A stretch of 64,000 nt of DNA from Anadara kagoshimensis (Eukaryota > Mollusca > Bivalvia > Arcoida > Arcidae): NCBI GenBank assembly GCA_021292105.1, contig CM037874.1, positions 33,096,185 to 33,160,184 on the forward strand, in the 5' to 3' direction. Below are positions 31,150 to 57,160 of the stretch, piece after piece. Below the pieces are notes generated by a model that did not search any database, was not told the origin of the DNA, and saw only the letters and a list, made by a program, of their open reading frames with translations. A program made the translations under genes and the position numbers. Each line of letters starts with the position of its first letter. Position 1 is the first letter of the stretch.

Positions 31150-31601
31150 TTATCTAAACCCGACACATTTGCAGTAATTGTGATTTGAATTAGCGGAATT
31201 AACTACACATCTGGCGGTGTCCTCAGTTGAGCAGTAATTCATACTCTCACAATCATCGTTGGTTTCGCATTCAGCTTGTTTGTGGCAGTGGCAGGCGTTA
31301 ACATATCCATCAGCTCCGGGATGGCAGTAAGCGTTCGGTTTGTACAATGGGCAATCGGAATTTAGACAGTCTTCATCCCGGTCACAGTGTCCAACGCCTT
31401 TGTAACGTCCATAGCTGTTTCCATACCCGTATTGTCCATAAGCGTTGCCAAATATACCTCTATACAAGTTACTATTTTTGTATCCCCCGCCATAATATTT
31501 GTCGCCATAGTTACCGCCGTAGTTACCGTAATAACCTTGGCCGTTGTAGTTGTTGTTCTGGTAACCATAGTAACCGTTGGCAGTTACTATCGCTAGGCAA
31601 C
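31150..31601 (-). CDS. Secreted Gly/Tyr-rich protein with two C-terminal Cys modules, exon 2
   Basis: This exon follows an acceptor TTTTATTCAG (AG at 31602-31603) and continues a phase-1 codon from the exon at 33183-33213; the joined protein is about 160 residues. The signal peptide MSYTLALIFLGCLAIVTA crosses the junction. Next comes a Gly/Tyr/Asn-rich region (about 19-82) with YYG and GGNY repeats, then two cysteine modules: C-x5-C-x4-C-x8-C-x10-C-x-C and C-x5-C-x5-C-x7-C-x11-C-x-C, each opening C[DE]xxxDC. Gly/Tyr-rich secreted proteins are common in mollusc shell, periostracum and byssus, which makes a structural role possible. I cannot assign a named family. The module is shared with three neighbours at 37-57 kb. 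Confidence 0.85.
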
Positions 31602-31736
31602 CTGAATAAAAATAATAAGTTAAACTTCATTTCAACATTCATAGTACGATTTATTATTTCAAATTTATCTTCCCTAATTCACATAATTCATTTTTACAAT
31701 TCACAAATTATTTTAATATGGATGGTCATAGTAAAT

Positions 31737-31938
31737 GGGGTTCGCCGCTGTACCACGTGATACCCGCTAACGTTTATGCTGAACACTTATTTTCAATGGA
31801 TATTAAATAGCATCAGATAACGGTTTTCCACGAAAACGACGTCATTCCGAGAATCTGTGACATTGACGTTTTCCGAAGCCATCCGGACAAACGTTAAGAG
31901 GTATTGATCACATGGTACAGCGGCCAACCCCATTGATT
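31737..31938. repeat. MITE family M5 (GTTCGCCGCTGTACCACGTG ends)
   Basis: ATGGGGTTCGCCGCTGTACC at the left and GGTACAGCGGCCAACCCCAT at the right are inverted ends, with AACGTTT / AAACGTT just inside. A second copy is at about 32063-32246. Both lie in the intron of the gene at 31150-33213. Confidence 0.7.
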
Positions 31939-32062
31939 CTAGGTGGATTTGGTTATTGACAATAAAATAAATGTGACTACTTTCTTACGATGTCAATAAT
32001 TGGAAGACAAAAAAATGTGCCAAACGACTATACGTTGTACCATCTAAAAGACGAATCAAATA

Positions 32063-32246
32063 AATGGGTTTCGCCGCTGTACCACGTGATCAATACCTTA
32101 AACGTTTCTGCGGAACGTTTTGGCAAACGTCAACGTCACAGTTCCCCGGAAAAAGTAATCTAATGCGATTCCATATCCATTGGAAATAAGTGCTTCGCAC
32201 AAACGTTAAAGGGTATCTCTTGGTACAGTGGCAAACCCCATTGATC
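32063..32246. repeat. MITE family M5, second copy
   Basis: Starts ATGGGTTTCGCCGCTGTACC and ends TGGTACAGTGGCAAACCCCA. The ends match the copy at 31737 while the interior has diverged. Confidence 0.7.
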
Positions 32247-32937
32247 GTGGCGTCATCAAGAGGTATTGAGGTTTGCTTTGGCGGTTGGTGCAGTAAATGC
32301 ATCATTGCTTTTTTATTTTTATTTAGATACACAGATTTTTAAGTCGTAAAATGATATCAAATATCAATTTTTATTAAATATTTAGTTGTAAGCGTTGAAT
32401 TGTTCATTAAAATTCAAACATAGAAGCCAAAAAACATGCACAGCGTCCATTCAAGATGACCAGATTGAAAATTATATTTTAAGCCCATAGTAAACATAAT
32501 TCGGATGAGACTCTAACTTGACATTTCACGATAAATTTTCTGAAATTATTGTTTATTTTTAAATCCATATAAAATGCAATTGTAACATGAAGGTTCTGAC
32601 ATACTGAAAATGAATGAGTCATACATATTTATTATGAATACCTTGATAGGTCTAATATTGAAATAATAAAAAAGAGATAATACGCCACGATTCCTTCAAT
32701 TTTTTGCAAGTTTATAGCAAAACAGGAGGTGCTTACCCTCCCAGAGCAATTGACCTCACTACTCTGGTATAAGTTTACGTGTTTAATTTAATTTGCCAGC
32801 TTTTAAAATTTTACTTTGCAGTTTAAGTCGTTAATTAAAATAACGATTTGGCAATATTTGGGACGTGGATATTTGTCTTTGTATTTTTTTTAATCAATGT
32901 TGATTTTGCTTTGTATTTTTCCTCTTTTTTGTTTTTC

Positions 32938-32939
32938 TG

Positions 32940-32990
<51 letters not shown>

Positions 32991-33044
32991 TTATTTTTAT
33001 TTATTTATTTATTTATTTTTTTTTTATTTATTTATTTATTATTT
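32938..33044 (+). repeat. (TTTA)n microsatellite
   Basis: About 25 TTTA units with two interruptions. They produce open frames of Phe/Ile/Leu/Tyr on the plus strand that are not genes. Confidence 0.95.
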
Positions 33045-33182
33045 TGTTGGTTGGTTATTTGATTGCTTGCTTTTGGCATTTCTTGCTTAAAAGCTATATT
33101 AAATTACTTTTTACCATTTATATAATCATTTATCTTTTTTCTATTATTTGATAAATAATTCATATGAACAGAGTTGACTTAC

Positions 33183-33213
33183 CTAAGAATATAAGAGCTA
33201 ATGTATAACTCAT
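33183..33213 (-). CDS. Exon 1 (signal-peptide start) of the two-module Cys-rich gene
   Basis: On the minus strand ATG opens MSYTLALIFL plus one base, followed directly by the donor GTAAGT (33177-33182). Phase 1 matches the exon at 31150-31601, giving an unbroken hydrophobic signal peptide. The 1581-bp intron carries two small MITEs, an R1 arm and a (TTTA)n run. An M1 MITE lies about 100 bp upstream of the ATG. Confidence 0.8.
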
Positions 33214-33316
33214 TATGACGCCTTTAATCTTACCGACCGATGTTGTCGAGAACAGCTCCCTAAGTGCTCTAAGAAAAAAAGTAACCTCCGACTTGATTTA
33301 TTAAAAAAAACTTTAG

Positions 33317-33560
33317 TATAGACCCGTCGAAAGTTTAACACTGGGGTTACGACGACTTGAAGCTCGACCACCGAATACCCGAGATACGGATAACTGGTAC
33401 GCGAAAAGCTGCCCAGATATTGTAAACAGCTGTCGAAAGATACCAGTATATAGGATCTACCAAAACGCTACCGAAAAATAGCTAGCGAGGAGAGCGATAT
33501 GAAGAACCTATTTCGGTCCTTATTTGTAGGCTCTGTGTAAAATTTTCGACGGGTCTGTAA
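33317..33560. repeat. MITE family M1 copy next to a promoter
   Basis: Starts TATAGACCCGTCGAAAGTTT and ends ATTTTCGACGGGTCTGTAA. It ends about 100 bp upstream of the ATG at 33211-33213. Confidence 0.75.
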
Positions 33561-33662
33561 TGTCTTTTTAAATGTCAAAACGATTACAATTCCTAATTTG
33601 AATATTAAAAAACAACAATCCTGTTTTTTAAGATGCTTTGCTACTTTTGTTACAGATGGTGT

Positions 33663-33894
33663 AATACAGACCGGTCGAAAATTTAACACTGAGCACACAA
33701 AACAAAGTCGCAGCTTGGCAACTGTGTAGCCCGTCGAGATATGGAGAGCTAGTGGCAAAAAGGCTGTTGAAAGATCGATATCAGCAGCCGAAAAGCTGAT
33801 GCGATATGGCTAAAGAAGGGACTGAGATGCGCTTCAAATTCCGCACCTTCATTCGTTAGCTCGGAATTTAACTTTCGACAGATCTGCACTGTAT
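33663..33894. repeat. MITE family M1 copy
   Basis: ATACAGACCGGTCGAAAATT at the left, AACTTTCGACAGATCTGCAC at the right. Confidence 0.75.
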
Positions 33895-33996
33895 TAAAGA
33901 AAGGAGAAATATACAAAATGTTAATTATGCTAAGTCAATTTTTATACATAATTATTATATGCTTCACTGACTGCAGTTATGTTTACCACCACATAT

Positions 33997-34243
33997 AGTA
34001 CAGACCCGTCGAAAGTTTAACAATAGACTAACAAATTAGTGCCGAATAGTCAGCTAATGCCGTTCCCACGTTAGCAGCGTTTCGGTAGTTGCTATATAAC
34101 TCTTGACAGTTTATTACGACAGTTGCTATATACCTATTGATCTCAGTTTTGGTCACAAGCTAACCATATACCGTCCTCTCGACAGCAGAACTTCGAGTCT
34201 AATTTGTGGGCTCACTGTTAAACTTTCGACCGACAGGTTTGAC
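33997..34243. repeat. MITE family M1 copy
   Basis: AGTACAGACCCGTCGAAAGT at the left, AAACTTTCGACCGACAGGTT at the right. Confidence 0.75.
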
Positions 34244-35166
34244 TTACAAACAAACGATAAGAAACTTGAAAATTTACTCAGTTAAATCAGTACACTGATA
34301 ATCAATTTGTTATGCATAATTTTGCCATAAAGTTTTTTATTCCCAGCTTTTCAAAGAGAGAGGGGGCATTACATTCGAACTTCCATTGGTCCATCCGTCC
34401 GCCAAAATACTTCTTTTCCGGAAATTATCCGAAACGATGAGGCTCTATTTTATACGACACTTGGTGTTAAGCATAAACATTGATACATTACCCCAAGTTG
34501 GTTAGCTCATTTTCCTGAAGTGTTTTTGGGTCGAGTTTTGTTTGGGTGTTTTTTTTTCAATGACTTGCGTAGTGTTTTTGATTGGGTTATTTGTTGGCAA
34601 ACATGTATTCTTTTACCTTTATTAAGATAAGAAAAAAGTGTTTGAAAGCCTTTTTAAACGAATTAACATTCAGTACTAATAATTTCCTAATAATTCAATT
34701 GATACCAACACAAATCTATCTTTATCGATATGAGACATAAAATAAGATGCATGAAGCGAAAGCGAACTCAAAGAATGCCCATACCTGTCTGATTTTTTCT
34801 ATATGAACATGGGTGCTCATTGCATTCAGACTCTTACCCCGTTTGCATTTTCTGAACTGAAACAGTGGTTAAAGCCGGTTCCAACGCTAAGGTTCGAATA
34901 TCGCTCGGTCAGGTCACTTACCAGTTCGGTTGCCGAAGTGAGATGGTTAAGTTTCCTTCATCATTTTAGAACGTAACGTCTTGATATAATTGAAAGAATC
35001 TTGACTGAGATATAACACTCCCAATCTGTTTCTAATGTTCAAGCTTGGAATGCCAAATCTTTGTCAGTTAGTCAAATTGATGCAATGGTGCTGAATTAGA
35101 AAAAAAAGTGTTGTAAGATATTTCTGGTATTATTCTATGTGGTTTTCACATTTAAATTGCTCAGTT
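34244..35166. other. Unassigned, with a SINE tail fragment
   Basis: About 34895-35010 (AGTTCGGTTGCCGAAGTGAG ... GAAAGAATCTTGACTGAG) matches the tail block of the SINE family. Nothing else was recognised. Confidence 0.4.
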
Positions 35167-35524
35167 ACAGAGTGCAGGCTTGTCGAAATCTTAACACTAA
35201 CGAATTAGTGTCTGATCGACAGCCTATACCGGCCTTTCGTTTCCTATATATCATGGCAAACTTTATACACTGGCTACATATATCTCGGGCAATCGGAAGC
35301 TTGCATTTGACTCCTTTGCGTTATCGCAGGTGCACTGGAGCACCAAGCCTCACTTCCTTGGTGTAAGTTCACATGTTTAACTTAACTTGTCTGTTTCAAA
35401 GTCTTTACTTGGTTTTTAGATTGTGATTTGGATACGGCTATGCTTAACATTCACACACCAACAGTGATGTCAAGTGATAAAAACATACCTAGTATGATAT
35501 TCAAATAGGTGCTTTCCAAGCATC

Positions 35525-35715
35525 TTTTATGTCACTACTGTAGCTTAATTGGTAGAGCAGTGCTCGCTACGTATGTGCGAGCTCGTGGGTTCGAACCTTT
35601 GACCGGGACTGACCAAGACTTGTAAATAGGTAGTAGCTGTTCTTTCACTTACCACTTGGCATTTAGAAATGAAAGCCGAGGGTCCTTCGAAAAAGACCTA
35701 AAAAACTATTGAAAA
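35525..35715 (+). repeat. tRNA-derived SINE, truncated
   Basis: The tRNA-like head TAGCTTAATTGGTAGAGCAG (A box) and GTGGGTTCGAACC (B box) is followed by a short body. An M1 fragment follows. Confidence 0.7.
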
Positions 35716-36104
35716 CACTAAGCTAATAGATAATCGACAAATCAACATCTCATCTAGGCCCCTCGTTAGCTCTATCTTGATAGCAGTTTCGACTTCTCTC
35801 TACAGAGAAGAGCCTAGAGCTCTCATCTAGCAGCCAAGCTTCGACTCCCTTTTGTTAGCTCGGTGTTAAACTTTCAGCAGACCTGTACAGTATTCAAAAG
35901 ATTCAATATTTATCTACTTTCTGTAGTCGTCTGTGTTGATTGGGACATAGTGTCAAGTATAGGCAAACAACATTGATCCGTCCGCTTGACCTTTCTTCAG
36001 GAATTACCAAACCAAAACATCGGCAGTGTTAGAATTCGCAGTTAATACACATACAAGTACAACGCATGTGTTTATATCTTGAAATTGGTGTCTACCCCGA
36101 TGTA

Positions 36105-36320
36105 CAGTACAGACCTTTCGAAAGTTTAACACTTAAGCTAACGGATTAGTGCCGAATTGACAGCTCATTTCGACCCCTCAATTGTAGCTTTTTCTCGACA
36201 GCTTCTTTCTAGCTCTAGGTAGCGTTGAGTTAGTAACAATTCATAATTTTTACACTTGGCAACCATGTTTCGACGTTTTTTTGTTTGCCCCGTGTTAAAC
36301 TTTCGACTGGTCTATACTGT
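36105..36320. repeat. MITE family M1 copy
   Basis: CAGTACAGACCTTTCGAAAG at the left, AACTTTCGACTGGTCTATAC at the right; 216 bp. Confidence 0.8.
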
Positions 36321-37029
36321 AGACTAATACAATTGTTTCAATTACACTTATATATCAGCTAGTCCGTAATGGTTATTTCAAATTTTAAGTCAAGAAGCCA
36401 GGTCAATGTTGTTTGCCAATACATATAACATGTTATTCGGTTATATTTTTAATAAATAACTATACTTTTTCAACACTTGAAAAAAATTGGTTTCACAATT
36501 TTAGTCCAAGCACTACTGATGGAGAAATGGGGGTATTCCGAAACGGTCGTCCAGTGCTGTAAAATTAACACTGGTATAATATGTCAATATAATTTAAATA
36601 ATTACAAAAAACAATTGTAAAGTGAAATTATTTTTATTGGTGTACACATTTTAATTTAATTATTGCACAAAAATCACGGCACTACCATAAATGCATTACA
36701 GTAAAATTTTGTTATAATGCCCCTTGAAAACATTGCCACCTCATCCGTGTCCGCGTTATTTTAAAGGACCGAAATCGATTTCTTCTTTGCATTTCTTTTT
36801 TCACCATGTACTTATCACTACAATCCTTTTATAGCGCCAAACTTTGAGTGAACAAAATGTGACAATGAATTAGAATTATACTGTATGCAAATATGTAATT
36901 AAAACGAAATTGCCATATATACATGTGGTCAGCTCTTTGAACGATTATGACATGAAAATTGGATGATTCTTTGCAAATAAATGAAAAATTTGAAATTTGT
37001 ATACAGTTCTTGTAAAAGTTTTTATAAAA

Positions 37030-37487
37030 TTAACAATTGCATGACAGTTTTGCTCTTAAGGAGAGCGTATTTCCTCCCATGCAAACTAAAATACAATCAT
37101 CATCCATTGAATTTAATGCATTTAAAGAGTTAAGTCGGCCGCCTGGCAAAATGCTGTTTGACAAACCATTTCCCAAATTATTCAGAGATCGTGGAAGTAA
37201 GCCATTCATTCGTCCTCCTAATCTTCCAAGTAAATTGTTTGATGACAATCCCAATCGACTTCCAAGATCGCCAAGGTCCATGGAATTTCCAAGGCCGTTA
37301 CCACGGGCTCCAAGTAGAGAATTAATGGAACCTAAGTTGCCCCAACTGTTCTGATTTTGAAGCCTGTTAAGGATGTTGCTGTCAAGCATGTCCTCTATCT
37401 GGGATCTAGTGAGATGGTCTGGTAAGTCTAATCCTGATAATAAATTTCTCATCAGAGATTGTGACGCAACCTGGCTGATCATCACAA
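37030..37487 (-). CDS. Small secreted Leu/Asn/Gly-rich protein with reduced Cys module, exon 2
   Basis: The exon follows the acceptor TTTTTATTTCAG (AG at 37488-37489) and joins in phase 1 to the 10-base coding exon at 38317-38326; the protein is about 155 residues. The signal peptide MVFLVMISQVASQS is short. A mainly Leu/Asn/Ser/Gly/Arg body follows, with LGNLG- and NSLL-type near repeats and no cysteines. The end is DDDCILVC...KLSCNC: C-x3-C-x13-C-x-C, a module like its neighbours but lacking one cysteine. TAA is at 37030-37032. Function unknown; low-complexity secreted proteins with Cys-rich ends are typical of mollusc extracellular matrix. Confidence 0.75.
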
Positions 37488-37542
37488 CTGAAATAAAAAT
37501 ACATAATGTAAGGGCTAGGACACTTGAATCCTTATGTCTACA

Positions 37543-37801
37543 GGTCCCGGTTTCACAATCATTTCTTAGCTAAGATTTTCCTTAACTTAAATTTTTCAAA
37601 ATTACAAATCTTTATAATTTTGATAATTTTCAAGATATTCTGCAATTTTAGGTGTAATTTTTAAGATCTTTTCGAAATAAAAACATTGGCATTTAGTTTT
37701 GACAAAAATATTTATCAGTAGTTACAATTAGGGGTTACCAAAATTTGCTAAATATAAGTTGAGGAAAATCTTAGCTAAGGAATGATTGTGAAACCGGGAC
37801 C
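37543..37801. repeat. MITE family M3, intact copy
   Basis: GGTCCCGGTTTCACAATCAT at the left is the exact reverse complement of the right end; the arms run about 50 bp (AAGATTTTCCTTAACTTAAA). The copy is 259 bp and lies in the intron of the gene at 37030-38326. Other copies: 38453-38711, 17950-18197, 29820-30245 (interrupted) and about 6700-6970. Confidence 0.85.
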
Positions 37802-38316
37802 AGATGTATTTACATACTATGTAAGAAGAATCATTTACATGGTTAAAACATTTGCGATTTTCACGGTTACACTTGAATTGTGAATATATCTTCTCAGCGA
37901 AAATAGCTTATGTCCTTTGGCACACCTTTCCTAAAGTTGCAACCGTGAATATACCTTACCACTAATTAGTTTAGTATGTCAAAACCACGTAAGTTTCCTA
38001 CCGCTAATCTTTCTTCTTATACAGTAATGTATGTTTAACTTCTAACTTTAACTGACAAAAATGAAACTGTGTTTGTTGATTAAATAGAATTAAATGGAAC
38101 AATCAAGGTTGATTTAAACATATTTCAGCCTACCCAAACTATATTGTTGTCACTCATGTCTATCACGCCCACCCCTTAAAACAGTTTTAACGAAGCAAAC
38201 TGTGTACAAATAAATTATTGATGCAAGGGTATTGCAAACCTTTTTTGTCAATAACCAATTAGTCAGGTACTGGTGCTACCAACAATATTAAGAAATTAAT
38301 AAATAAATGGACTTAC

Positions 38317-38326
38317 GGAAAACCAT
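38317..38326 (-). CDS. Exon 1 (10 coding bases) of the Leu/Asn/Gly-rich gene
   Basis: On the minus strand ATG GTT TTC C is followed directly by the donor GTAAGT (38311-38316). An in-frame stop lies three codons upstream, so this ATG is the earliest possible in the exon. The phase fits exon 2. The R1 repeat ends only about 49 bp upstream, leaving almost no unique promoter sequence. Confidence 0.65.
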
Positions 38327-38374
38327 TATTTTCTATAAAACAGTGGTGTGTAAATAAAAAAAACCGTACTTATC

Positions 38375-39277
38375 AATGTCTAAATCACAATCCCAAAGCA
38401 AAGCAAAATCTTTCAAACTGACAAATAAGTTCCCGCAACGGAAGTAAGACCTGTCCCCGGTTTCACAATCATTCCTTAGCTAAGATTTTCCTTAACTTAA
38501 ATCTTACACAATTTTAAATCTTTATTATTTTGTTAATTTTTAAGATATTCAGGAACTTAAGGTGTCAACATTAAGATAATTGCTAGAATTAAGTATTTGC
38601 ATTTAGTTTTGGGAAAAATACTCATCAGCGGTTTTAAAAAGAGATTACCAAAATTTAGTTAAGTTAAGTTAAGGAAAATCTTAGCTAAGGAATGATTGTG
38701 AAACCGGGTCCTGGTGCTCCGGAAGGGTAAGCGCCTCTTGCTAAGCTATATACATCCACCATGTGTGTAATTGAAATTGGAAATGAAAGGAACGTGGAAT
38801 TACAGGACATCAAATATTAGATACAGAGACATCATATGTATCAACAATATTGTGATGAAGGCCACAAAACTATGTGAGGGCCCTGATAAACCTAGGGTTG
38901 TAATATCCCGTGTCAAACATTTATTTGTAAGCAGCATGCTTCGTTCTATAAAGTTCTCGTATTGGGAACACGATCTACCACATAGCGTATTGGTTATGAA
39001 AGAAATACACCATATGCAGGCTTATCAAGGCCCTCAAAAATATTATGACCCTCGTCACAATAATGCTGTTAAGTATGATATCTCTGTTCACATACTATCT
39101 TTGGTTTACTAGTATTTGAGGTCCAATAGTTCTATTTTCCTTTTATTCTTTATTTCTTTTTTATTTTTATTTGTAGCCAGCTAAATAGGAAGTGTTTACC
39201 CTTCGCAGTACGCGGCCTTTTTTTCCTGGTGGAAGTTTACGTGTTTAACTTAATTTGCCACTTATTATTTGGACATG
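38375..39277. repeat. R1 foldback element interrupted by an M3 MITE
   Basis: The left arm starts AATGTCTAAATCACAATCCC and continues after the M3 copy (38453-38711, flanked by CCTG on both sides) at CTGGTGCTCCGGAAGGG. The right arm ends at GGACATG. The long open frame at 38771-39112 is made of the two arms and is not a gene. Confidence 0.75.
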
Positions 39278-39518
39278 TCTTTTTTATAACAAACAGACTT
39301 GCCAGATGGTAAGTTACCAATAGAAGGTGGGGTTTCAATAGAAAATCTACAAAAGTGGCAAAATGGAGGTAACTTCATGCAATTGACAGGAAATAAGATC
39401 CTTGCTAAGTTTAAAGATAAAATTTTACAAAACGAGATTTACAAAAAACTAAAATAAAATGCACAAATTATAATCCTCGTAATTTTTATTATAAGAAATA
39501 ACGTTTGCACTTTTCAAT

Positions 39519-39655
39519 TTGTAGCTAACTTAACAGGAGGCGCTTATCCTTCCGGAGCACCTGGCCTCACTCCCCTGGTGGAAGTTCATTTGTCTAACTT
39601 AACTTGTCAGTTCCAAAGTTTTTACATTGCTGCTGGATTGTGATTCGGACATGGA
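39519..39655 (+). repeat. R1 foldback family, single arm
   Basis: Contains CTTAACAGGAGGCGCTTATC and CTTCCGGAGCACCTGGCCTC, then TTGTGATTCGGACATGG. Confidence 0.7.
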
Positions 39656-39809
39656 TTAGCATGTTCGGTTTTGATTATTTAAAATAATAGCATAACTTGA
39701 TAACAGGTAAAGCTCGCTGTTCAAATATATAAACAATGACAGGTTTTGATTAGAATCGTTACTGAAATTTTATCTTAAAAAAAAATTCCACAACAGTACA
39801 TGTCGAATA

Positions 39810-40205
39810 TCAATCCAAATACAAACCAAAGTAAAATCTTTGAAAACTAGCAAATTTGGTTAAATGCGCTAACTTATACCCCAGGGAAGCGAGGCCTGGT
39901 GCTCTGGATGAGTTAATACTTCCTAGCTACACCTACCGCGTGTAAAATCCAAATTGAAAATCATCAGAACATAAACCTATGGGGCATCAAACATATCGCG
40001 GATAAATGTGGATACAGATACATTAAAAATCTTGTTTCACATTTTTGGCTCAAGCACTACCGCTGAGAAATTGTATTCCGAAACGAACGTCTAAAGGTAT
40101 ACAATTAGCACTGGTATAAAATGTTATTGCCAAAAATTTTGTTATGACGGCCATAAAACTTTTCGAGGGCCTTGATATGCCTAGATTTGCAATATCCCCG
40201 AGTCA
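39810..40205 (-). repeat. R1 left arm with an inserted dispersed repeat
   Basis: R1 left-arm blocks (CCTGGTGCTCTGGATGAG, TTGTTATGACGGCCATAAAA, GCCTAGATTTGCAATATCC) are separated by a segment with CTCAAGCACTACCGCTGAG. That segment recurs near 36505, 42645, 50338, 58555 and 58880. Confidence 0.6.
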
Positions 40206-40209
40206 ACAA

Positions 40210-41500
40210 AATATTTAAAAGAAGTTACATTTCGAACTACTTTGGATACTTTAAAAATCATTTTGTGTCAACGTCCATGGTCACACTATGTGTGTATGAA
40301 AATTCTAATTGTTCTTTTTTGTTTATTTTTATGTTGTGTTTTCGGTTGAAGTTGCTAGCTAAAGCTACAATTATTAATAACTATTTCATTAAAACGATTA
40401 AAGTCTTACCTAATAATGGGATTAAGTGTAAATATTCCATTGTTATATTCTTCTTATCTTCGTGTGCTTTCTAGTTTCAGGTTTGTTGTGATCTGAAGAA
40501 AAACTTCAAGTTTACATATATTTATACAAAAAAGTTAAATATCAAGAGAATGGGGCACGCCAAATTAAGTTCCCCCTTTCTAAATCACGCAAAAGCATTG
40601 TCGTAATACGCATTCACCTGTAGGAAATTAACACCTGTATAGCGGAAGTAGTTTGCTCGCAAACAGAAGTAATTAACAAAAAGAAAGTCCATTGGTCAAT
40701 ATATTTTTTTCCGGATGATATTATTAAGTATGACTTGTCTGCGTGTTAAAACTTAAACGTATTTTAAGAACAAAAGCACCATTCGTGATTTAATTAATGT
40801 TTTAAGTTGCGTATAATTATGTTGGTAATGTTCTTTTGGTGATCGGATTGTGTCCCTTGTACTTCCTGTTTATTTGTGATATGCAATAACACTTTAAAAA
40901 CTCATTATTTTTTAGAAATAATTAAAAAAGAAGTAATAATACCGTTACAGGTAGTGTTGAATAAGACCACATGATTGGGTAATACAATATTAATTATTTA
41001 ATTAATAAATTAGCTAATCTGAAATGTCATTTTATTTCTACTTTGTTCTGATCTGTATTTTACAGGAAATTCGAGTCTTTCAAATATGAACTTTAGGTAT
41101 CGTGTTATGTTTTAAGCTGTATTACTATCATCTATAGCTTTCACAGGTGTTATTTCTAACAACTTCTTACATTTTCTTAAGGAAATATAATTTATGTGAT
41201 ATCCAAATTTTATGTTGAACATACATATGCCGGGTTTTTGTTTGGTCACCGGCTTTACTTTCCCGATGGGAGTTTATGCACTTAGCTTAATTTGACATTT
41301 TAAAAACATTACTTCGCTTTTGGGATTTTGATTTAAACACGGACAGGTGCGTTAGTTTGGAGTTTGTTCTTAAGGTTTAAAAATATATATGACGGTTTTT
41401 TGGCTTAATACAAGTACTTTAACCAAATCACTGGGTATCATTTTGCCATTATATCAAAACCTTGTCCACCCCATGTGTCTTAAATAATAAAAAATAGTAT
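40210..41500. other. Nothing recognised except a weak R1 arm
   Basis: A degraded R1 arm lies at about 41225-41350. The open frame at 40172-40474 runs through repeat sequence and lacks any protein motif. Confidence 0.35.
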
Positions 41501-41502
41501 TC

Positions 41503-45823: not shown

Positions 45824-45854
45824 ATGAAGAACTTAGTAATTCCATTTTTCTTCG
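45824..45854 (+). CDS. Exon 1 (signal-peptide start) of the Thr-rich secreted gene
   Basis: ATG opens MKNLVIPFFF plus one base, followed directly by the donor GTAAGT at 45855-45860. Phase 1 joins to the exon starting at 48582 and completes the signal peptide MKNLVIPFFFALIEA. Confidence 0.8.
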
Positions 45855-46043
45855 GTAAGTTTTTATACAATTACATTATGTCAAAATTTTAAATGTTTCA
45901 TATACTGTATGTTTGAAAATAAATTATTTGGTGATGTTGTGGTACTGAGTTAAGGTAGTTAAAAACATTATTTATTCATCAGTAAATACAAATAATACAA
46001 TACAAAACAAATTGTAAACTGGATTCATGAACAAGCGCAAGTC

Positions 46044-46545: not shown

Positions 46546-47350
46546 CTTGTTTTAATGATATTTATAATGTTATGTTTGATACACATATATCCATTTCAAT
46601 ACATGGATTGTCCTCTAAACATGCAATATTATATATCTTTGGATATACATACAACAAGCGAGCAAAAAAGCATGTAGCTCAGTTTTTATTGGGACGGGCT
46701 CAAGGTCCAAGAATCATCAGTTTGAATCCTGACGATGGCAAGTTGTATTGCTGCAGATTTACCCGATGTCAGGATAATGAATTGGTGAGGCAGCAACCTC
46801 TGTAACTGCTGTCTCGTTGCCTTAAAATCTTAAAAGTCGCCCCAAGTGTGTACACTAGAACAAAGCAGACATACGCATAGTAAACACTGTCGCTAATGGA
46901 TACACTGGGTGGGGGTAGTCTAGTGTAATCTGGTTGATACATGGACAGGAGTGCAAAGATTAAAAATGCGCCCATACAACCCTTATGCTCACTAAAGGCG
47001 TCTAATACAATTGAGTAAAGTAAAGGTGAATATACAGGTCCGTCCAGAAAGTTTTGAGCACCCCATAAACTACACTGGGAACAACACATATGTTCCAAAA
47101 TATAAATAAATATTTTTTTCTATGTCAAATGATACCAAGAAACACCTTTTTACAGTAGGAAAAGGACGTTATACGGAAAAAATACTCGTTAAATAAATAC
47201 ACTCTCCAAAAATCCAATTTTACAAAATTTCTAAATAGGCTAGTATTTTTTAATAAAGAATATATTGTAACTGATAAAAATGCATGTTTACCATTAAAAG
47301 TGCTTGATAATCACATGAAATTAAGTACTATGACCCTTTTCAGTGTTTTC

Positions 47351-48306: not shown

Positions 48307-48581
48307 CCATATTTGAAGAAATTGAATTTTTCCCAAATTTTTACATTTGTTTTATTACTCGCAGTTCACTAAAACCAAAATGGATCCCTTTATCAGTTAT
48401 TCCTTTTGAAAAACATCCTATGTAGTAAATAAAATAGTCCTTCGACAAATATAAGTTAAACTGAAACTGTCAACACTGCTGTTTTACAAAGGTTCTATAA
48501 GGGGGCACAAACCTGTATAATCATTTGCTATCTAGTAATAACTCATTATTTCTTGTTTTTCATAAGCATTTTCTGCATTAG

Positions 48582-48976
48582 CGCTTATTGAAGCGGATGA
48601 AATCGACAACAATAGCACAACAACAACGACAACATCACCAACGACTCCTTCAACGAATGCGACAAATTCAACATCGACAACCGATGGACTGATTTCCAGA
48701 CTTGACGACGCAATTAAAGATGCCATCGATAAAACCGTGGACACCTTTGTGGACAAGAATAAGGATTCATTTAACGAAATCTTTCATATTAATCAGCTGG
48801 TTGGAAAAGCAGCAGCCAAAGGGAAATGGGATTTGATATTTCACAACCTTCATAAATTCATTCACATCAGTAGCTTGGTCGATGATCATTGTTGTTATAA
48901 CCAGTGTATCTTACATACTAAGGGACAAGATTGTGATCTTCATAATCCATGTGACTGCAGTGATTATCTGGAATGA
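48582..48976 (+). CDS. Secreted Thr-rich, helical, Cys-tailed protein, exon 2
   Basis: The exon follows the acceptor TTTTCTGCATTAG (AG at 48580-48581) and joins in phase 1 to 45824-45854; the protein is 141 residues. After the signal peptide comes a Thr/Asn/Ser-rich stretch (about 20-50, with N-x-S/T sites, fit for glycosylation), then an acidic amphipathic region (LDDAIKDAIDKTVDTFVDK and beyond) that is probably helical. The C-terminal module is C-x3-C-x8-C-x5-C-x-C ending CDCSDYLE. TGA is at 48974-48976. The last ~40 codons are partly duplicated twice downstream. It shares gene design and module with the genes at 31, 37 and 51 kb but runs on the opposite strand to them. The intron is 2727 bp and full of repeats. 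Function unknown. Confidence 0.82.
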
Positions 48977-49175
48977 TCTTTAACCCTTTTCTGACCTTGA
49001 CCCCGAGTTTGTTCATAAACGATTGCCGACAAGGTTATGATCTTCATAATCCAAGCAATTGCAGTGATTATTTGGACTGAACTTTTTCTGAGCTTGACCC
49101 CTAGTTTGTTCATGAAGGGTTGCCGCGAAGGTTGCGATCTTAATTCATGCAATTGCAGGGATTATTTGGAATGCC
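48930..49175 (+). repeat. Tandem duplications of the gene 3' end
   Basis: The segment TGTGATCTTCATAATCCA ... TGCAGTGATTATCTGGAATG at the gene end recurs at about 49036 and 49132, about 104 and 96 bases apart. The second and third copies still read like (N/C)xC-x-DYL[DE] but lie after the stop. Confidence 0.8.
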
Positions 49176-49409
49176 ATATTATTTTTTTTCTTACTTAATC
49201 TTGAACCCAAGTTTGTTCACAAACGATTGTCGTAATATTTATGTATACAAGTAGTGTAGAAGACTATTTTGAATCAGTATTTGAACCTCACGTGTACTAG
49301 AGATTATAATGTACAGTTTAATTATGTTATACAAGAAATAATGCATTGCCATTAAAATGTTATCAATACATCTTGTTTTTATTTGTATACTTAATACCTC
49401 TGGCCCTTG

Positions 49410-49738
49410 TCGTGCCACTATGGTAGCTCAGTCAGTACATTGCTCACTTCGTAAGTGGGAGGTCGTGGGTTCGAGCCCCGACTGGGTCTGACCCAGATGT
49501 AATTGGGTAGTGACTGTTCTTTTGCCAAGCAATACGCATTACTAAATGAAAGTCTGAGTTCTTAAAATAAACGAGGTCCCGTGTCACGGTAGGCGTGGCA
49601 CAATAAAGAACCCTGCTGTCATTAGCGCAACGTACAGGCAAACTTTCTGTACCTTCGTCTATAACTGGCGACGCCCCGATATAAGTTAGATATTGTTGAC
49701 TGGGACGCTTAACACCGTTACTCAACTCAACTCCTATC
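49410..49738 (+). repeat. tRNA-derived SINE, best full copy
   Basis: Head ATGGTAGCTCAGTCAGTACA (A box) and CGTGGGTTCGAGCCCCGAC (B box), body with AAACGAGGTCCCGTGTCACG and GTGGCACAATAAAGAACC, tail GACTGGGACGCTTAACACC...ACTCAACTC; about 325 bp. The 93-codon open frame on the other strand is a by-product of this SINE and recurs with the other copies. Confidence 0.85.
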
Positions 49739-50132
49739 TCAATGTTAAACTTTCCACAGGTCGCTTCTGAACGTATACTATTGAATTCTCAAAAATAACA
49801 AATACATGACGAAAATTTATTATTTAATTAAATCATCCAATTATAATTTAATATTCTAAAACGATGTGCAATTTTTCCTCTTTCCTTGATTTTCCGCATT
49901 CTGCCTACCTATAATTTAATAAAAAAAACCACGTATTACATTAGAAATGAAACTTTTATAACGAACACGTGCGCTATACAAAAAAGAAAACACATTGAAA
50001 TAAAAACTGTTGAAAAAATGGTTGTTTCACCATGTATCAAGCTATACTTAGTCTTTCAAAGTATTGTTATTGGTGCATTTTATAAAATAAATCTTGGACG
50101 TTTTGTTTTTCTCATTTGAATAACTTAAATCA

Positions 50133-50311
50133 ACAGTCACACTTGTCAATAAAGGCCATCCAAGGAAACCAGTAAAAGTGGCCTTTAAGGGCAGGTGGCC
50201 CTTATATACAGGTTCAAATAATAGAATAAAAACAATCAAGATACAATTCTACTGGCCTTTATAAGCAGGTGGCACTTATATAGAGGTGGCCTTTAAGGCA
50301 GTTGGGAATGT
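50133..50311. repeat. MITE family M2 copy
   Basis: ACAGTCACACTTGTCAATAA at the left and GGTGGCCTTTAAGGCAGTT at the right, with the shared GGCCATCCAAGGAAACCAG block. Confidence 0.7.
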
Positions 50312-50397
50312 GTTTGGATTTCTACAAATTTGGTCCTAGCACTACTGATGAGGAATTTTGTTCTGAAACGGTTTAGTGGTGCAAAATTAAAACAAAT

Positions 50398-50583
50398 TTA
50401 GTAATACTTTTTGCCTAGTACAATCTTTTCATCTAGTTGCTTGCAACATGGAGTATAGCAGGTAGAGTTTATCAGCTTGAGGCATCTGCTGTCCTTGGCA
50501 AAATGTTTCGGACACTGTGAACAATAGTTATGTTTCAAAACAAAAATGAAATTCAATTTATGTCGAATGAGACTGAGAAACAT
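50398..50583 (-). CDS. Doubtful Cys-rich open frame
   Basis: A 61-codon frame on the minus strand contains CSQC...C...CYTPCC and ends KKYY. It lies in sequence that is duplicated elsewhere in the window (46.8-47.1 kb), where the matching frame diverges after CSQC. It has no signal peptide, and its Cys spacing does not match the four-gene module. Possibly a repeat-derived frame. Confidence 0.15.
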   Translation of the reverse strand: MFLSLIRHKLNFIFVLKHNYCSQCPKHFAKDSRCLKLINSTCYTPCCKQLDEKIVLGKKYY

Positions 50584-51139
50584 CTATTTGCAGAAGGAAA
50601 TGGAATTTATACGAAAAATAAATACTTTAAATACACTCACCATTTCTAAATATTTTACAGTTTTCAATACAGAGTGCAATGTAACTGATAAAATCGTATC
50701 TTTTTTCTTTGAAAGTGTTTTGTAAAAACATAGAGCTAGATCTTTTCAATGTCTTGTATTCATTTAATTCATATTTCAAGAAATTTTAAAGCTTTCAAAC
50801 CTTTTTTATTTGTTTTACTACTTGTAATTTACTAGAACTAAAATTTAATCTTTTATAAATTATGTCATTTTAAAAACATCCTATTTAGTGGAAAAATAGT
50901 CGTTTGACAAAGGCTGTCTATATCTAAACCAATCCCAATCAAATTCCAATTCATTGCGTAAGGATATTTCACCGTAGTGAACCACTAGTACAAAAAGCAC
51001 GGTTAGTTGTTGGAAAATTTGTTTTGATTTTAAGTTGATGAGAATTAACATAAATCAGAAAGTTTATAGAACATTATTATTTTTTTTTATTTTATAAGGG
51101 TACCCTTAATAAGATTTAACATTAATCCTTGAACAATGA

Positions 51140-51480
51140 ATTTGATTGAATGGTGTTTTACGTACTAATCAATAATATATCACTTATATATATAGCAACG
51201 TCACTAACTATATAGGTGAAGTGGCAGAAATTTTATTTTTTGCATTGTGCTCAGTGCAATAGGCATGCAAGGTTCTTTAACGTGCCACGCCTGTCGGGTT
51301 TTTAAGGTCTCTTCTAAAAGACCCATTACGATTCATTTCTTAAACATTGCCGAGTGCTTGGTTAAAGAATAACGACTACTTATTTCAAGTTTTGTACAAA
51401 TCTCGACCGGGGATCGAGCCCATGACCTCTTTTATACGAAGCGAAAACTCTATCAATTAAACTACGTATACCATAGTGGT
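51140..51480 (-). repeat. tRNA-derived SINE (minus strand), diverged
   Basis: The head lies at the right end (B box GGCTCGATCCCC on the minus strand) and the tail at the left (GTAAAACACCATTCAATC). Confidence 0.65.
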
Positions 51481-51738
51481 AAAAACTGAAGAGAGAGAGC
51501 GTATATAAAAATGACAGTCTTTACCAATGAAAATGTATTTTGTTTGAATTTATCCATTTTGTAACGGGTATAAGGGTGTCTTATGCAATATGGTGTTTGG
51601 AATGAAACGTAAACATAGATCGGTCTTTACCCTGTGATTCCTTAGTGTTTTTGTCGTCTCAAAACGAATGAATGCAAATATATAATTACTATAAACACTA
51701 AAAAGTTTACAAAGTAATTCGAAAATAAACTTGCATAC

Positions 51739-51953
51739 CTAATCATCGAAGCAGTAACAACGTGAAGCATAGGCATTGTATCCAAGTGGCATAGCGGCTT
51801 TGTTGCAACAGTAGTAATTCTTGGTAGATGGAGCACAAAAATCCCGACAGTCGCTGTTGTTATCGCATTCCTTCGGGCCATCTCCATTTGGGTAATAGCT
51901 GAAATCTCCTGGGCTCTTATAGCATGCAGTATTGGTGGCAACTGTGACCGAAA
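51739..51953 (-). CDS. Small secreted single-module Cys-rich protein, exon 2
   Basis: The exon follows the acceptor TTGCTTTTTCCCATAG (AG at 51954-51955) and joins in phase 1 to the exon at 57124-57160; the protein is 83 residues. The signal peptide MSFKVFLFLAALVSVTVA crosses the junction. The mature part has one free N-terminal Cys (TACYKS), an aromatic stretch, and one module C-x5-C-x3-C-x8-CC-x15-C-x-C that opens CDNNSDC and ends CYCFDD. TAG is at 51739-51741. It is closest in module to the two-module gene at 31 kb. An alternative single-exon start at 52014 would read the polypyrimidine tract as a signal peptide; I prefer the spliced model because exon 1 fits in phase and sequence. Confidence 0.8.
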
Positions 51954-52295
51954 CTATGGGAAAAAGCAATGAAACTAATAACGCAAGAAAATTAAAAGGC
52001 ACAGCTGAAAACATGTACCTATAATTTATGCCAACAACCAAGGACATCATGCAGTATTAGTAGTAACAGTGACCGAAACTATGGGTAACAAATCGAAACA
52101 ATGAATGTAATAACGCAAGAAAAACAAAATGTGCACCTGAAAACATGTATCTGGCATATATGCTTACAATCAGAGGACGTCATGCAGTATTGGTGGCAAC
52201 AGTGACCGAAACTATGGGTAACAAATCGAAACTATGAATGTAATAACGCGAGAAAAATAAAAGGTACTGCTGAAACAATGCTTATGTCATATACC
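51922..52295 (-). repeat. Three tandem copies (~125 bp) of the exon 2 start region
   Basis: The block GCAGTATTGGTGGCAACTGT ... GAAACTATGGG ... ACGCAAGAAAA ... GAAAACATGTA recurs at about 51926, 52052 and 52180. Each copy contains the splice acceptor and the first coding bases of exon 2; only the first leads into the cysteine module. Confidence 0.85.
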
Positions 52296-52473
52296 ATCTT
52301 TTTAATGTATTTTATGATTAAATTAAAAAAATGGTATATGACACTTACAACCAAAGGACGTCACCTCAAAGAAATAGATTAAATCATGGATAATACATTG
52401 TATATATTGAGATTCGATTAAATCAATAAAAATAAATATAATGGAAAGATTGTTATCAAAGCAAACATACCAA

Positions 52474-52982
52474 TCTATGTTCCAATCCCAACCCCAAAGT
52501 AAAGTTAAAAGTTTGAAAATTTAAACAAATCAAAATTAAACACACGAATTTCTACCCGGGCAAGCGGGAAAGGTAAGCATATGAATATAAACCTAAAACT
52601 AGAATTTTTAGCAGTCCTCTACAACAATTAAAACACAAACATTCTGGTCTTTGTTCAAATCATAATCCAAAAAGCAAATCAAAATTTTTGAAAACTGGCA
52701 AATTAGGTTAACTTCCCGCATCGGGTGCTTGATGGAAATTTTGCATTTAGGATGATGATTTGAACATGGGTCCGTATGTGTGTGTGTTTTTTTAATAAGA
52801 ATGAAAAATACCATCATCAGAAGCACCAACAAAAATCCATACATGTCAAAATAACAATCCAAAAGCTAAGTAAAAATTTTGAAACTGACAAGTTAAGTTA
52901 AACACGGGAATTTCCGCCTGGGAAGTGAGGTCGGGTGCTCTTGAAGAAAAGCATCTCCTAAATAGGTAACTACACCCGCCAC
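52474..52982 (-). repeat. Three R1 left arms in a row
   Basis: Blocks starting near 52474, 52640 and 52842 each follow the R1 order (CAATCCAAAAGC-like, TTTGAAAACTGGCAAATTAG, then CGGGTGCT). The third reaches ACTACACCCGCCAC. Confidence 0.65.
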
Positions 52983-53727
52983 TTTTTTACTATTATTCTA
53001 CATCGAAGGTAGTAGTCAGGGGGCAGATCCCAAAAATGTGACACCCCCTAAACTTTTTTGTTAAAAGCAGGAAACATGGTGGATCTTATTGCCCTATATG
53101 TACTTAGTTAGGCTAGGTATGTTTCCACCTTGACTTTTTCCGTTTAATGGAAATATGGCTGCCATCCAAGATGGCCGCCAAAAAAGATAATTTAAGTATA
53201 ATAATTTAATATCAAATCAACCACTCAACCTTTTTAGTTGAAATTTGGTATTTGATCAATTAAATATTTATACTAATTTTCCATGAATAAACATTGGTTG
53301 TAAAATTCAATATGGCCGCCATTTTCAAGATGGCCGACTTATAATCATCGCGCTGCATTTTAAGTCAAATACAGCATTCGATGTCATTATTTTATGATAT
53401 TAAACCAATGTATTGTATTTAATATATATGTATTTAGTTAGGCTAGTATGTTTTCACCTTACTTTTTCCGTTTACTGAAAATATGGCTGCCAAATCAAGA
53501 TGGCCACCGAAAATGATAATTTTAAAATTAAAATTCAATAACAAATCAACCGCTTAACCTTTTGAGTTGAAATTTGGTATTTGATCAATTAAATATTTAT
53601 ACTAATTTTTTATGAACATTTTTCATGTGGTTGTAAAATTCAATATGGCCGCCATTTTCAAGATGGCCGACTTATTAATCATTGCGCTGCATTTTAAATC
53701 AAATACAACAAAGGAATGCATTTAATT

Positions 53728-53753
53728 GCTGCGCGCGCGCGCGTGTGTGTGTG
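53728..53753 (+). repeat. (GC)n(GT)n microsatellite
   Basis: GCGCGCGCGCGCG followed by TGTGTGTGTG at the inner edge of the left arm of the long-TIR element. Confidence 0.85.
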
Positions 53754-54087
53754 TTACATATTATGTGAAAATATTATTAATACAGCTCTTTAAACTTATT
53801 TTATGTAATTGAAATAACGAAGCTGAAACATTCAAGCATTTGAATCAATTTAATAGCTATGACTTTTGACGTCTGCAATAAAAAATAGTCATCTCGCCCA
53901 TTCAAACATTCAAAGAGGTCCAACAGCAACATGATTAACATCCACGGGCACTTTGCAGCAATATATTCTATACGTATATCCCTTATACTTATTATATTAG
54001 TATGATCAGAATATAACATATTTCCCCGGTTCAAAAATTCAACAGTTATAAATATAGGATTGAAAACAGTCTTTTATTTCCAAAACA

Positions 54088-54270
54088 TTAACTGTACAAC
54101 AAAAACCAAGACCATAAAAACATCTGCATCTCTACAAAGGATAAGCGTCTGACCATTATCTGTTTCTTTGGCTCCTTTGGCACAAAGAACAATTCTTGTG
54201 CCTGCCTCTTTATAGGTTGCTCAAAGACCTGATTTACCTCGCCCTGTACTCGAGAATGTAGTATTTGCAT
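54088..54270 (-). pseudogene. Open fragment with HSRVQGE motif, left of an inverted pair
   Basis: It reads LHSRVQGEVNQVFEQPIKRQ and ends shortly after with an AATAAA. The frame at 55579-55767 on the other strand reads LHSRVQGEIHQVFVQTINKQ, so one protein-coding ancestor is present twice, head to head, inside the long-TIR element. I do not recognise the family. It may be the tail of the element's own protein. Confidence 0.4.
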
Positions 54271-55578
54271 TAAAAAAACCCTAACCTAACCATCAACTGC
54301 TTGCCATACACCCTTTTTGTTTATCTCATTTGATATAAAACCAAAAAAAAATCAGATTCATTCTTTATTCTCGCCCATATATATTGAATTATTCCAATTT
54401 TCAACTTTCCATCTCTTTTTTCTGCATTACATGTATTATTCTTTGAATCGAATTATTCTTACCAGTTCTTACTGGTTTTAATACTCTATGATTGTGATTT
54501 GTGGGTGGATTGTTGTGTTTGTTTCTGATTTATTTTTTTCTTGCCAGACTTTATAAAATGCTCAAAATATCAATCAAACAATACATCACAAAACATCTAC
54601 TCTATCACTATTCCTTAAATGACACTTTGTGCTATCTGCAAATCTACAAACTTGTCAAAGGTTTGTGCATTGGTGCTTTCCGAATGCTGTTAACCAATGT
54701 CATACTCTCTATTATGGTACAAATCTTTATACCTTTTTCAGAACATTTCTGAATGACATCATCAACCTGTGGCTACATCAGATGTTTGTTGATTGGTCGT
54801 AAACTACCTGATGATGTTACTTAGAATACAGTTACTTCTTTTTATCCAGTATATCACTATCACCATTACCTCTTCCTGCTTTCACTGACACCATGATAAT
54901 TATTATTTAGCTATTATTGTTTTGATTTTTGAAACTCCATAATGGTACCGAAAAATATAAAGACCTGTACGATAATATATGGTACGGCATTGGAAAACCA
55001 CAATATGTACTTTGAAGATTGTCTCGCAGCAACCACAAAGTATCGTTTTAGAAAATAGTGTTAGAGTAGATTGTTTGCTTTATAAAGGCTTAAATCAGAC
55101 AAAAAGAATAAATTTGAATCAAACATACCAATCCATGTCAAAATCACAGTAAAATCTTGAAACTTTTAAATTAAGTTTAACACAGGAACATCCGCCAGGA
55201 AGTGAGAACGAGTATCCTGGAAGGGTAATTGAGCACCCCACACTTTTTAGAATGAAAGGAATATGAACTTTGGGACGCCACATATCCATGCATGTATTTT
55301 CGGATACAGAGTCACCATACTATATTGTGATGACAGCCACAAAACTTTATGAGGGTCTCCATAAGCCAAGGTTTGCACTATTCCTACATCAACAAATTCA
55401 TTTGTTAGCAGTTTGCACCGTTGTATAAACAGATTTAAAGAATGCAGAAGAGAGATGGAATTCCATGTTGCCTGAGAATTCGAAAAATTTTATAAATACA
55501 TTTACGGGAGAGAATAAGGCTTAACTGACCAGTTTTTTATCAAATAAGTTCTGCAAGAAAGTACAAGACAAGGAGTTA

Positions 55579-55767
55579 GTGGTTTGTGGAGGGTTGCGAA
55601 TCCAAATGCTACATTCTCGAGTGCAGGGCGAGATACATCAAGTCTTTGTGCAAACCATAAATAAGCAGACTCAAGACTTGTTCCTTATGCCAAGTGAAAT
55701 GGATAGAATAACGGATAATGATCAGACGTTTTTATTCTCTTGGCTTTGTTTCACAACTAAACAGTAA
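55579..55767 (+). pseudogene. Open fragment with HSRVQGE motif, right of an inverted pair
   Basis: This is the partner of the fragment at 54088-54270, about half identical over some 45 residues (LHSRVQGEIHQVF...QTQDLFLMPSE). Conservation at the protein level between the two arms hints at past coding. No start or full domain is visible. Confidence 0.4.
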
Positions 55768-56312
55768 TGTTTAAGTGAGTACTACAACAAAAAAGAAACC
55801 GAAATTTCCAGGAGTCAAAAAGAAATATCAGAAGAAAAACATTTAGATTTGTTGGTATTTTATCAACAGACACTGATTGAGCTTCAAGCATGGGAGTGTT
55901 CAAACAAATTACAGAGTTTGAAAACTGAACTGAAAGCTTATAAACATACGATAAAGTCGGTAATACTTTTATCAAGTGTAGATTCTTTTGTTTGTAATCT
56001 ATTTCAAACTACCATTCCTTAACAAAAACCTTCGTGAACTTCACAGTCATATGTTTCGCCATTGCCACTGTACAAGATACGTTCCGGTCATGCACATTAA
56101 ACACATTAATTATCAGAAATGGTTTGGAATCCTCAGTAAAAACTATCATTAACTCTTGTTAGTAGTTGGGAAATTGACCTTAAATATTTATGAATGTGGA
56201 GTTGTTGAATCTTTGTGTGTAATTATTACGAAAAACACATTCTACTGCACAGTTGTTTGTGGATGTGTGAATCATGCTGATGTAAAAAGCTTTTAAAGGA
56301 GGCAGTTAACTA

Positions 56313-56376
<64 letters not shown>
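56313..56376 (+). repeat. (TA)n microsatellite
   Basis: About 32 TA units at the inner edge of the right arm of the long-TIR element. Confidence 0.95.
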
Positions 56377-56379
<3 letters not shown>

Positions 56380-57123
56380 TTTATTGTATTTAAACAATGC
56401 ATCGTGGTGATTTTAAATCGGCCATCTTGAAAATAACGGCCATATTGAATTTTACAATCCGAAATTATTCATGGAAAATAAGTATAAATATTTAATTGAT
56501 CAAATACCAAATTTCAACTCAAAAGGTTAAGCGGTTGATTTGTTATTGAATTTTATTTTTTAAAATTATTTTTTTGGTGGCCATCTTGGATTTGGCAGCC
56601 ATATTTTCAGTAAACGGAAAAAGTCAAGGTGGAAACATACTTAGCCTAACTAAATACATATATATTAAATACAATACATTGGTTTAATGTCATAAAATAA
56701 TGAATTCTATGTTGTATTTGATTTCAAATGCAGCGCGATGATTATAAGTCGGCCATCTTAAAAATGGCGGCCATATTGAATTTTACAACCATGTTTATTC
56801 ATGGAAAATTAGTATAAATATTTAATTGATCAAATACCAAATTTCAGCTAAAACGGTTGAGTGGTTGATTTGATATTGAATTTTTATACTTAAATTATCT
56901 ATTTTGGCAGCCATCTTGGATTGGCAGCCATATTTCCTTTAAACGGAAAAAGTCAAGGTGGAAACATACCTAGCCTAACTAAGTACATATAGGACAATAA
57001 GATCCACCACGTTTCCTGCTTTTAACAAAAAAGTTTAGGGGGTCAATAAAGAGGCTACTTTTTGAGATCTGCCCCCTGACTATAGTGATTTTAGTTAACA
57101 ATTTACTTTATTCAAAAACTTAC

Positions 57124-57160
57124 CCAAAGCAGCTAGAAAAAGAAAAACTTTGAAAGACAT
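57124..57160 (-). CDS. Exon 1 (signal-peptide start) of the single-module Cys-rich gene
   Basis: On the minus strand ATG opens MSFKVFLFLAAL plus one base, then the donor GTAAGT (57118-57123). G plus TT completes Val and continues SVTVA, a classical signal-peptide end. The 5170-bp intron is mostly the long-TIR element whose right edge lies only about 40 bases from this donor. Confidence 0.75.

What the first reader, a model, noticed from the sequence alone, without database searches (positions are those of the whole stretch)
31150..57160. Cluster of four small secreted genes with one shared gene design and a shared C-terminal Cys module
Seen: each gene has a first coding exon of 3-12 codons that stops inside the signal peptide, a GTAAGT donor, a phase-1 intron and one further exon. 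The last exons end in C-x(3-5)-C-x(7-8)-C-x(5-15)-C-x-C: twice in the gene at 31 kb, once at 51 kb and 48 kb, and reduced at 37 kb. The regions before the module differ completely (Gly/Tyr-rich, Leu/Asn-rich, Thr-rich plus helical, short aromatic). Inference: one ancestral secreted-peptide gene duplicated, and its middle part was replaced or expanded, as in mollusc shell, byssus or defence peptide families. I know no named family with this exact pattern.
Basis: partly seen in the sequence, partly recalled or inferred. Interest (0 to 1): 0.85.

Follow-up and report, generated by a model that had tools for sequence, protein, structure and literature searches.

The report
Small secreted cysteine-rich gene cluster
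Four neighbouring genes appear to make small secreted animal proteins; two of them share a cysteine-rich module that looks distantly like a defensin, while the other two share only the gene layout, so this is an interesting but probably ordinary case of fast-evolving secreted proteins.

Summary
The four gene models are in the sequence: a short first coding exon, a phase-1 intron inside the signal peptide and one further exon. Two corrections: gene 2's first exon is more likely at 40440-40410 than at 38317, and gene 3's better acceptor is 48567, not 48582. The Cys pattern is far above chance, but the module is not shared by all four. A six-Cys module, C-x5-C-x(3-5)-C-x(7-9)-C-x(9-16)-C-x-C, occurs twice in gene 1 and once in gene 4. 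These modules resemble each other beyond their cysteines; genes 2 and 3 do not. Gene 1 has one relative in about 5.8 billion proteins, 77% identical over 93%, from a Tara Oceans metatranscriptome assembly, so a relative is transcribed. Genes 4 and 3 fit the defensin framework C..C-x3-C..C..C-x-C; low-confidence models of genes 1 and 4 give helix-strand-strand, with weak matches to defensins and scorpion toxins. Best reading: genes 1 and 4 are diverged members of a lineage-specific, defensin-like secreted family; gene 1 adds a Gly/Tyr-rich part. Genes 2 and 3 are secreted orphans. Host organism not determined.

The parts
33183..33213 (-). gene 1 exon 1, 31 nt coding, first half of signal peptide (MSYTLALIFL + G), donor G|GTAAGT
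31150..31601 (-). gene 1 exon 2 with stop: end of signal peptide and whole mature protein
   Evidence: relative P0001 at 77% identity
31387..31578 (-). gene 1 Gly/Tyr/Asn-rich part, 64 aa (30% Gly, 27% Tyr, 17% Asn), no Cys
31285..31386 (-). gene 1 first six-Cys module (spacings 5,4,8,10,1)
31165..31269 (-). gene 1 second six-Cys module (spacings 5,5,7,11,1)
40410..40440 (-). gene 2 preferred exon 1, 31 nt (MEYLHLIPLL + G), donor GTAAGA, TATAAAT at -86; it would also fit gene 1's acceptor in phase
37030..37487 (-). gene 2 exon 2 with stop: Leu/Asn/Gly/Ser-rich protein, short C-x3-C-x13-C-x-C tail at 37033-37095
45824..45854 (+). gene 3 exon 1, 31 nt (MKNLVIPFFF + G), donor G|GTAAGT, TATAAAA at -90
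57124..57160 (-). gene 4 exon 1, 37 nt (MSFKVFLFLAAL + G), donor G|GTAAGT
51739..51953 (-). gene 4 exon 2 with stop; mature peptide 65 aa, 8 Cys; module at 51751-51867
51937..52014 (-). gene 4 alternative single-exon signal peptide, starting in the intron and reading through the acceptor

Best explanation
Genes 1 and 4 are diverged members of one small, lineage-specific family of secreted cysteine-rich proteins whose module most likely folds as a cysteine-stabilised helix plus two strands (CS-alpha-beta-like, as in defensins). Gene 4 is a single free module with the canonical C-x3-C and C-x-C motifs. Gene 1 carries two modules with a stretched C-x(4-5)-C behind a Gly/Tyr/Asn-rich part. Proposed mechanism: the precursors enter the secretory route and the signal peptide is cut (inferred from hydropathy). 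Disulfides make the modules into small stable knobs (inferred from Cys spacing and weak models). In gene 1 the Gly/Tyr-rich part serves as a structural or cross-linkable part of an extracellular material such as a cuticle, shell cover or adhesive (inferred from composition only). Genes 2 and 3 are separate secreted orphans in the same neighbourhood that share the split signal peptide but not the module.
For: The six-Cys pattern C-x5-C-x(3-5)-C-x(7-9)-C-x(9-16)-C-x-C occurs three times in the window, all in genes 1 and 4, against one match in 200 simulated windows (the pattern was drawn after seeing the sequences). Leave-one-out profiles against Cys-fixed shuffles: gene 4 7 of 1000, gene 1 second module 29 of 1000, gene 1 first module 18 of 1000. 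A relative of gene 1 from a Tara Oceans metatranscriptome assembly keeps all 10 module Cys that its cut-off sequence reaches (10 of the 12 in gene 1), while the Gly/Tyr part is shorter. Models show helix-strand-strand in both gene 1 modules and in gene 4, with both Cys of gene 4's C-x3-C in the helix and C-x-C in the last strand. For gene 4, 4 of 4 Foldseek matches at E up to 10 and 29 of 29 chains of the second look (22 scorpion toxins, 6 plant defensins, the cystine-dense peptide 6avd) are small cystine-rich folds (that these are CS-alpha-beta is recalled, and the second look only re-aligns Foldseek's own list). For gene 1, 13 of 25 Foldseek rows and 11 of 17 second-look rows are scorpion toxins (one counted from a cut title). 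The defensin framework C..C-x3-C..C..C-x-C is stated in PMC5234102 (abstract). Defensin-like genes with repeated modules and a phase-1 intron after the signal peptide are described in Nasonia (PMC2853521, passages).
Confidence: 0.5

Rival explanations
1. All four genes descend from one ancestral secreted-peptide gene whose middle was replaced.
For: Shared phase-1 split signal peptide; with the corrected gene 2 the first coding exon is 31, 31, 31 and 37 nt; all end in C-x-C; genes 3 and 4 both fit the defensin framework; gene 2 versus gene 3 reaches p=0.03 in a full shuffle, 0.053 with Cys fixed.
Against: Genes 2 and 3 show no module similarity beyond Cys (604 and 329 of 1000), though the test is weak, since gene 1's own two modules also fail it pairwise; first-exon DNA similarity is mostly ATG plus donor; gene 3 lies on the opposite strand.
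Confidence: 0.2
2. The genes are unrelated secreted orphans and the Cys similarity is convergence.
For: Phase-1 introns at signal peptides are general; 9 of 10 module pairs do not pass Cys-fixed shuffling at 0.05.
Against: Gene 1-gene 4 similarity beyond Cys shows in three overlapping tests; D precedes the second Cys in all three modules and Y-C recurs in gene 1's first module and gene 4; modelled topology agrees.
Confidence: 0.25
3. Gene 4 and perhaps gene 3 are true immune defensins, and the cluster is a defence-peptide locus.
For: Framework and weak structural matches.
Against: Acidic mature peptides, no Pfam defensin match above cutoff, Gly/Tyr-rich gene 1.
Confidence: 0.12

Closest known systems
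CS-alpha-beta defensins and defensin-like peptides (plants, fungi, invertebrates)
   Same: small secreted peptide; gene 4 and gene 3 fit C..C-x3-C..C..C-x-C; modelled helix-strand-strand for gene 4
   Different: no Pfam match above cutoff, acidic, long loop (15) before C-x-C in gene 4, C-x(4-5)-C in gene 1, C1 next to C2 in gene 3
Atypical Zymoseptoria fungal defensin-like peptides (PMC5234102, abstract and discussion seen)
   Same: altered Cys framework next to typical members, linked by gene structure; overall anionic
   Different: fungal; 195 members there (132 typical, 63 atypical); no sequence comparison made here
Nasonins of Nasonia (PMC2853521, passages seen)
   Different: insect; no sequence comparison made here
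Insect cuticle-protein genes with one intron inside the signal peptide (PMC1626468, passages seen)
   Same: structural extracellular proteins with a single intron splitting the signal peptide
   Different: phase 0 there, phase 1 here
Schistosoma japonicum egg-protein genes with a similar signal sequence (PMC3434034, abstract and first part of one section seen)
   Same: short secreted proteins sharing core promoter and signal sequence, flanked by repeats
   Different: there the signal sequences are nearly identical; here they share only length and phase
Mussel foot proteins and Gly/Tyr-rich shell proteins (recalled, no call)
   Same: Gly/Tyr/Asn-rich composition of gene 1
   Different: no homology found; host not shown to be a mollusc

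Membership tests
CS-alpha-beta defensins | Cys framework C1..C2-x3-C3..C4..C5-x-C6 | tested here: met
   met by gene 4 and, with C1 adjacent to C2, by gene 3; not met by the two gene 1 modules or gene 2; framework from PMC5234102
CS-alpha-beta defensins | helix followed by two strands, C-x3-C in helix, C-x-C in last strand | tested here: inconclusive
   gene 4 model shows it but pLDDT is 63.9; matches weak; gene 3 not modelled
CS-alpha-beta defensins | match to a defensin profile | tested here: not met
   Pfam: gene 4 with part of its signal read AtDEF-like E 0.11 (13.2 bits, cutoff 25), absent for the mature peptide; gene 1 second module Nodulin_late E 0.024 (15.4 bits, cutoff 30.4) and AtDEF-like E 9.3; gene 3 tail none
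CS-alpha-beta defensins | disulfide connectivity C1-C4, C2-C5, C3-C6 (recalled) | not testable with these tools
   needs peptide mapping
CS-alpha-beta defensins | secretion signal | tested here: met
   by hydropathy only, no dedicated predictor
big defensins | phase I intron at the 5' end of the Cys-rich region, hydrophobic N-terminal domain | tested here: inconclusive
   the intron lies in the signal peptide, compatible with gene 4 only (PMC7203481 passages); the hydrophobic domain and beta-defensin spacing were not examined
shell matrix or byssal proteins | presence in shell or byssus proteome, expression in mantle or foot | not testable with these tools
   no RNA or proteome data; host unknown

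The most novel reading that the evidence does not exclude
One signal-peptide exon (about 31 nt, mid-signal phase-1 intron, clear TATA motif in genes 2 and 3, weaker in 1 and 4) has been copied and captured by unrelated downstream exons in this repeat-rich stretch, so that new secreted proteins, some with a defensin-like end, arise by signal-exon capture at one locus.
Probability: 0.15. Interest if true: 0.65.

Novelty: new variant of a known kind. Interest (0 to 1): 0.38.

Why it matters
If right, it puts a canonical defensin-like single module and a doubled, stretched version joined to a Gly/Tyr-rich structural part side by side in one genome, which would help in asking how defence-type folds are reused in extracellular materials. 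The decayed duplications at the ends of genes 3 and 4 show how such exons change.

Tried and rejected
Homology: gene 4 found no candidate sharing three words; a gene 3 piece and a gene 2 piece in one joined query found none at E up to 0.1 among 628 candidates. These are weak negatives because relatives must share exact 5-residue words. NCBIfam gave one irrelevant match at E 0.07 for gene 3; Pfam gave composition-type matches for gene 3 below cutoff (GLYCAM-1 E 0.017, New_glue E 0.37); PDB sequence searches at E up to 10 gave only matches of E 0.12 or worse, which I take as chance; viral contigs none; Rfam none at gathering threshold.

DNA comparison: exon 1 with donor, 4 of 10 pairs (gene 2 counted in two versions) at p up to 0.03, but ATG and donor are fixed in all, so not used; with 150 nt upstream and 60 nt of intron, 1 of 10 pairs (gene 1 with the new gene 2 exon, p=0.02); exon 2, 2 of 6 pairs below 0.03 (genes 1-3, 3-4), no consistent picture. 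Protein pairs: 1 of 12 below 0.05 with Cys fixed, 4 of 12 with full shuffles (gene 1 first module, second module and whole with gene 4; gene 2 with gene 3).

An earlier loose Cys scan returned 7 ORFs, two of them genes 2 and 3, missed genes 1 and 4 (0.675 expected, 40 simulated windows), and was replaced. In one search the exon at 40440-40410 also fits gene 1's acceptor and is slightly more hydrophobic there than gene 1's own exon (3.00 against 2.91), at 8.8 kb against 1.6 kb; a shared first exon is not excluded. ORF lengths of genes 3 and 4 alone are not strong (136 aa or more, 11 in the window, 1.6 expected; 100 or more, 29 against 13.5; 60 simulated windows).

Literature: 10 searches listed no paper that I could match to this module; only listings and the named passages were seen, so this is no claim that it is unpublished. 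Myticalin genes of mussels (PMC5577615, passages) differ: the whole signal peptide lies in one exon.
Full report
Observation. Splicing them gives open precursors of 160, 155, 146 and 83 aa, all through phase-1 junctions with GTAAGT donors. A scan of both strands for a hydrophobic first exon with any GTRAG donor returns three sites, those of genes 1, 3 and 4, all G|GTAAGT; in 100 simulated windows (order-2 Markov) the mean is 1.39 with any donor and 0.1 with G|GTAAG. Gene 2 is not found by that scan. The Cys pattern, slightly widened to admit gene 4, is met by three ORFs (four modules) against 0.13 ORFs per simulated window, n=150. So the genes are more than chance, though no RNA from this genome was available.

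Corrections. TATAWAW motifs are not rare here (0.15-0.21 per 71-nt slot), so this is support, not proof; and the same exon would also fit gene 1. With it, the first coding exon is 31 nt in genes 1, 2 and 3 and 37 nt in gene 4. Gene 3's acceptor is better placed at 48567; 48582 also works in phase. Gene 4 could instead start inside its intron end. Two upstream copies of its acceptor in a 133-bp tandem array would give 22-residue dead products.

Module. Genes 1 (twice) and 4 (once) carry C-x5-C-x(3-5)-C-x(7-9)-C-x(9-16)-C-x-C; these are the only three matches in six frames, and 200 simulated windows gave one match in all. The pattern was fixed after seeing the sequences, so the contrast is optimistic. 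Beyond cysteines: of 10 module pairs, one (gene 1 first module with gene 4) passes Cys-fixed shuffling, p=0.0065, repeated at 0.006 with longer pieces and local alignment (1 of 12 pairs below 0.05). Leave-one-out profiles give 7, 18 and 29 of 1000 shuffles for gene 4, gene 1 first and gene 1 second module; gene 3 gives 329 and gene 2 604 of 1000. The two modules of gene 1 do not match each other significantly (p=0.43; 314 of 1000), so the test is weak and a negative for genes 2 and 3 is not final. The three tests reuse the same sequences.

Relatives. Gene 1 has one relative, P0001, 77% identical over 93% of the query, among 10 candidates in about 5.8 billion proteins. Its source label is MERC, described in PMC10369885 (passages) as a protein assembly of Tara Oceans metatranscriptomes. 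It covers the modules up to its cut end, keeps the 10 module Cys it reaches, and has a shorter Gly/Tyr part. This points to a transcribed marine relative, but does not name the species. No relative was found for genes 2, 3 or 4, and no Pfam family reaches its cutoff.

Design. Phase-1 introns near the signal-peptide cleavage site are general (PMC7259759 and PMC1626468, passages), and PMC7259759 notes a depletion inside the signal peptide. The introns here fall about 5-9 residues before the likely cleavage site (by eye), so shared ancestry of exon 1 is possible but not shown; the DNA of the first exons shares little beyond ATG and donor. PMC1626468 also mentions insect cuticle-protein genes with a single intron inside the signal peptide, there phase 0.

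Verdict. Very likely real genes, partly related. Genes 1 and 4 form a small family that works like, and may belong to, defensin-like CS-alpha-beta proteins; membership is not established because profile matching fails and connectivity is untested. Genes 2 and 3 are unlinked orphans on present evidence.

Noticed in passing
window 48924-49170: The end of gene 3's last exon plus 3' flank is tandemly repeated (97 bp, 2.5 copies); the second copy has lost Cys, the third keeps CDLNSCNCRDYLEC.
   Followed up: partly
window 51923-52293: A 133-bp unit, 2.9 copies, duplicates gene 4's acceptor and first exon-2 codons; the two upstream acceptors would yield 22-residue products.
   Followed up: yes
window 19775-21580 (-): Carboxylesterase gene or part of one (Pfam COesterase, E 4.7e-126).
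   Followed up: no
window 423-1487 (-): Gag-like ORF (Pfam PNMA, E 3e-11, with a CCHC knuckle below its cutoff), probably a retroelement.
   Followed up: no
window 12982-14218: 31-bp minisatellite, 39.9 copies, open over long frames on the - strand.
   Followed up: no
   Followed up: no
window about 35540, 47800, 49425: tRNA-like heads that suggest SINEs (by eye; no Rfam match at gathering threshold).
   Followed up: no
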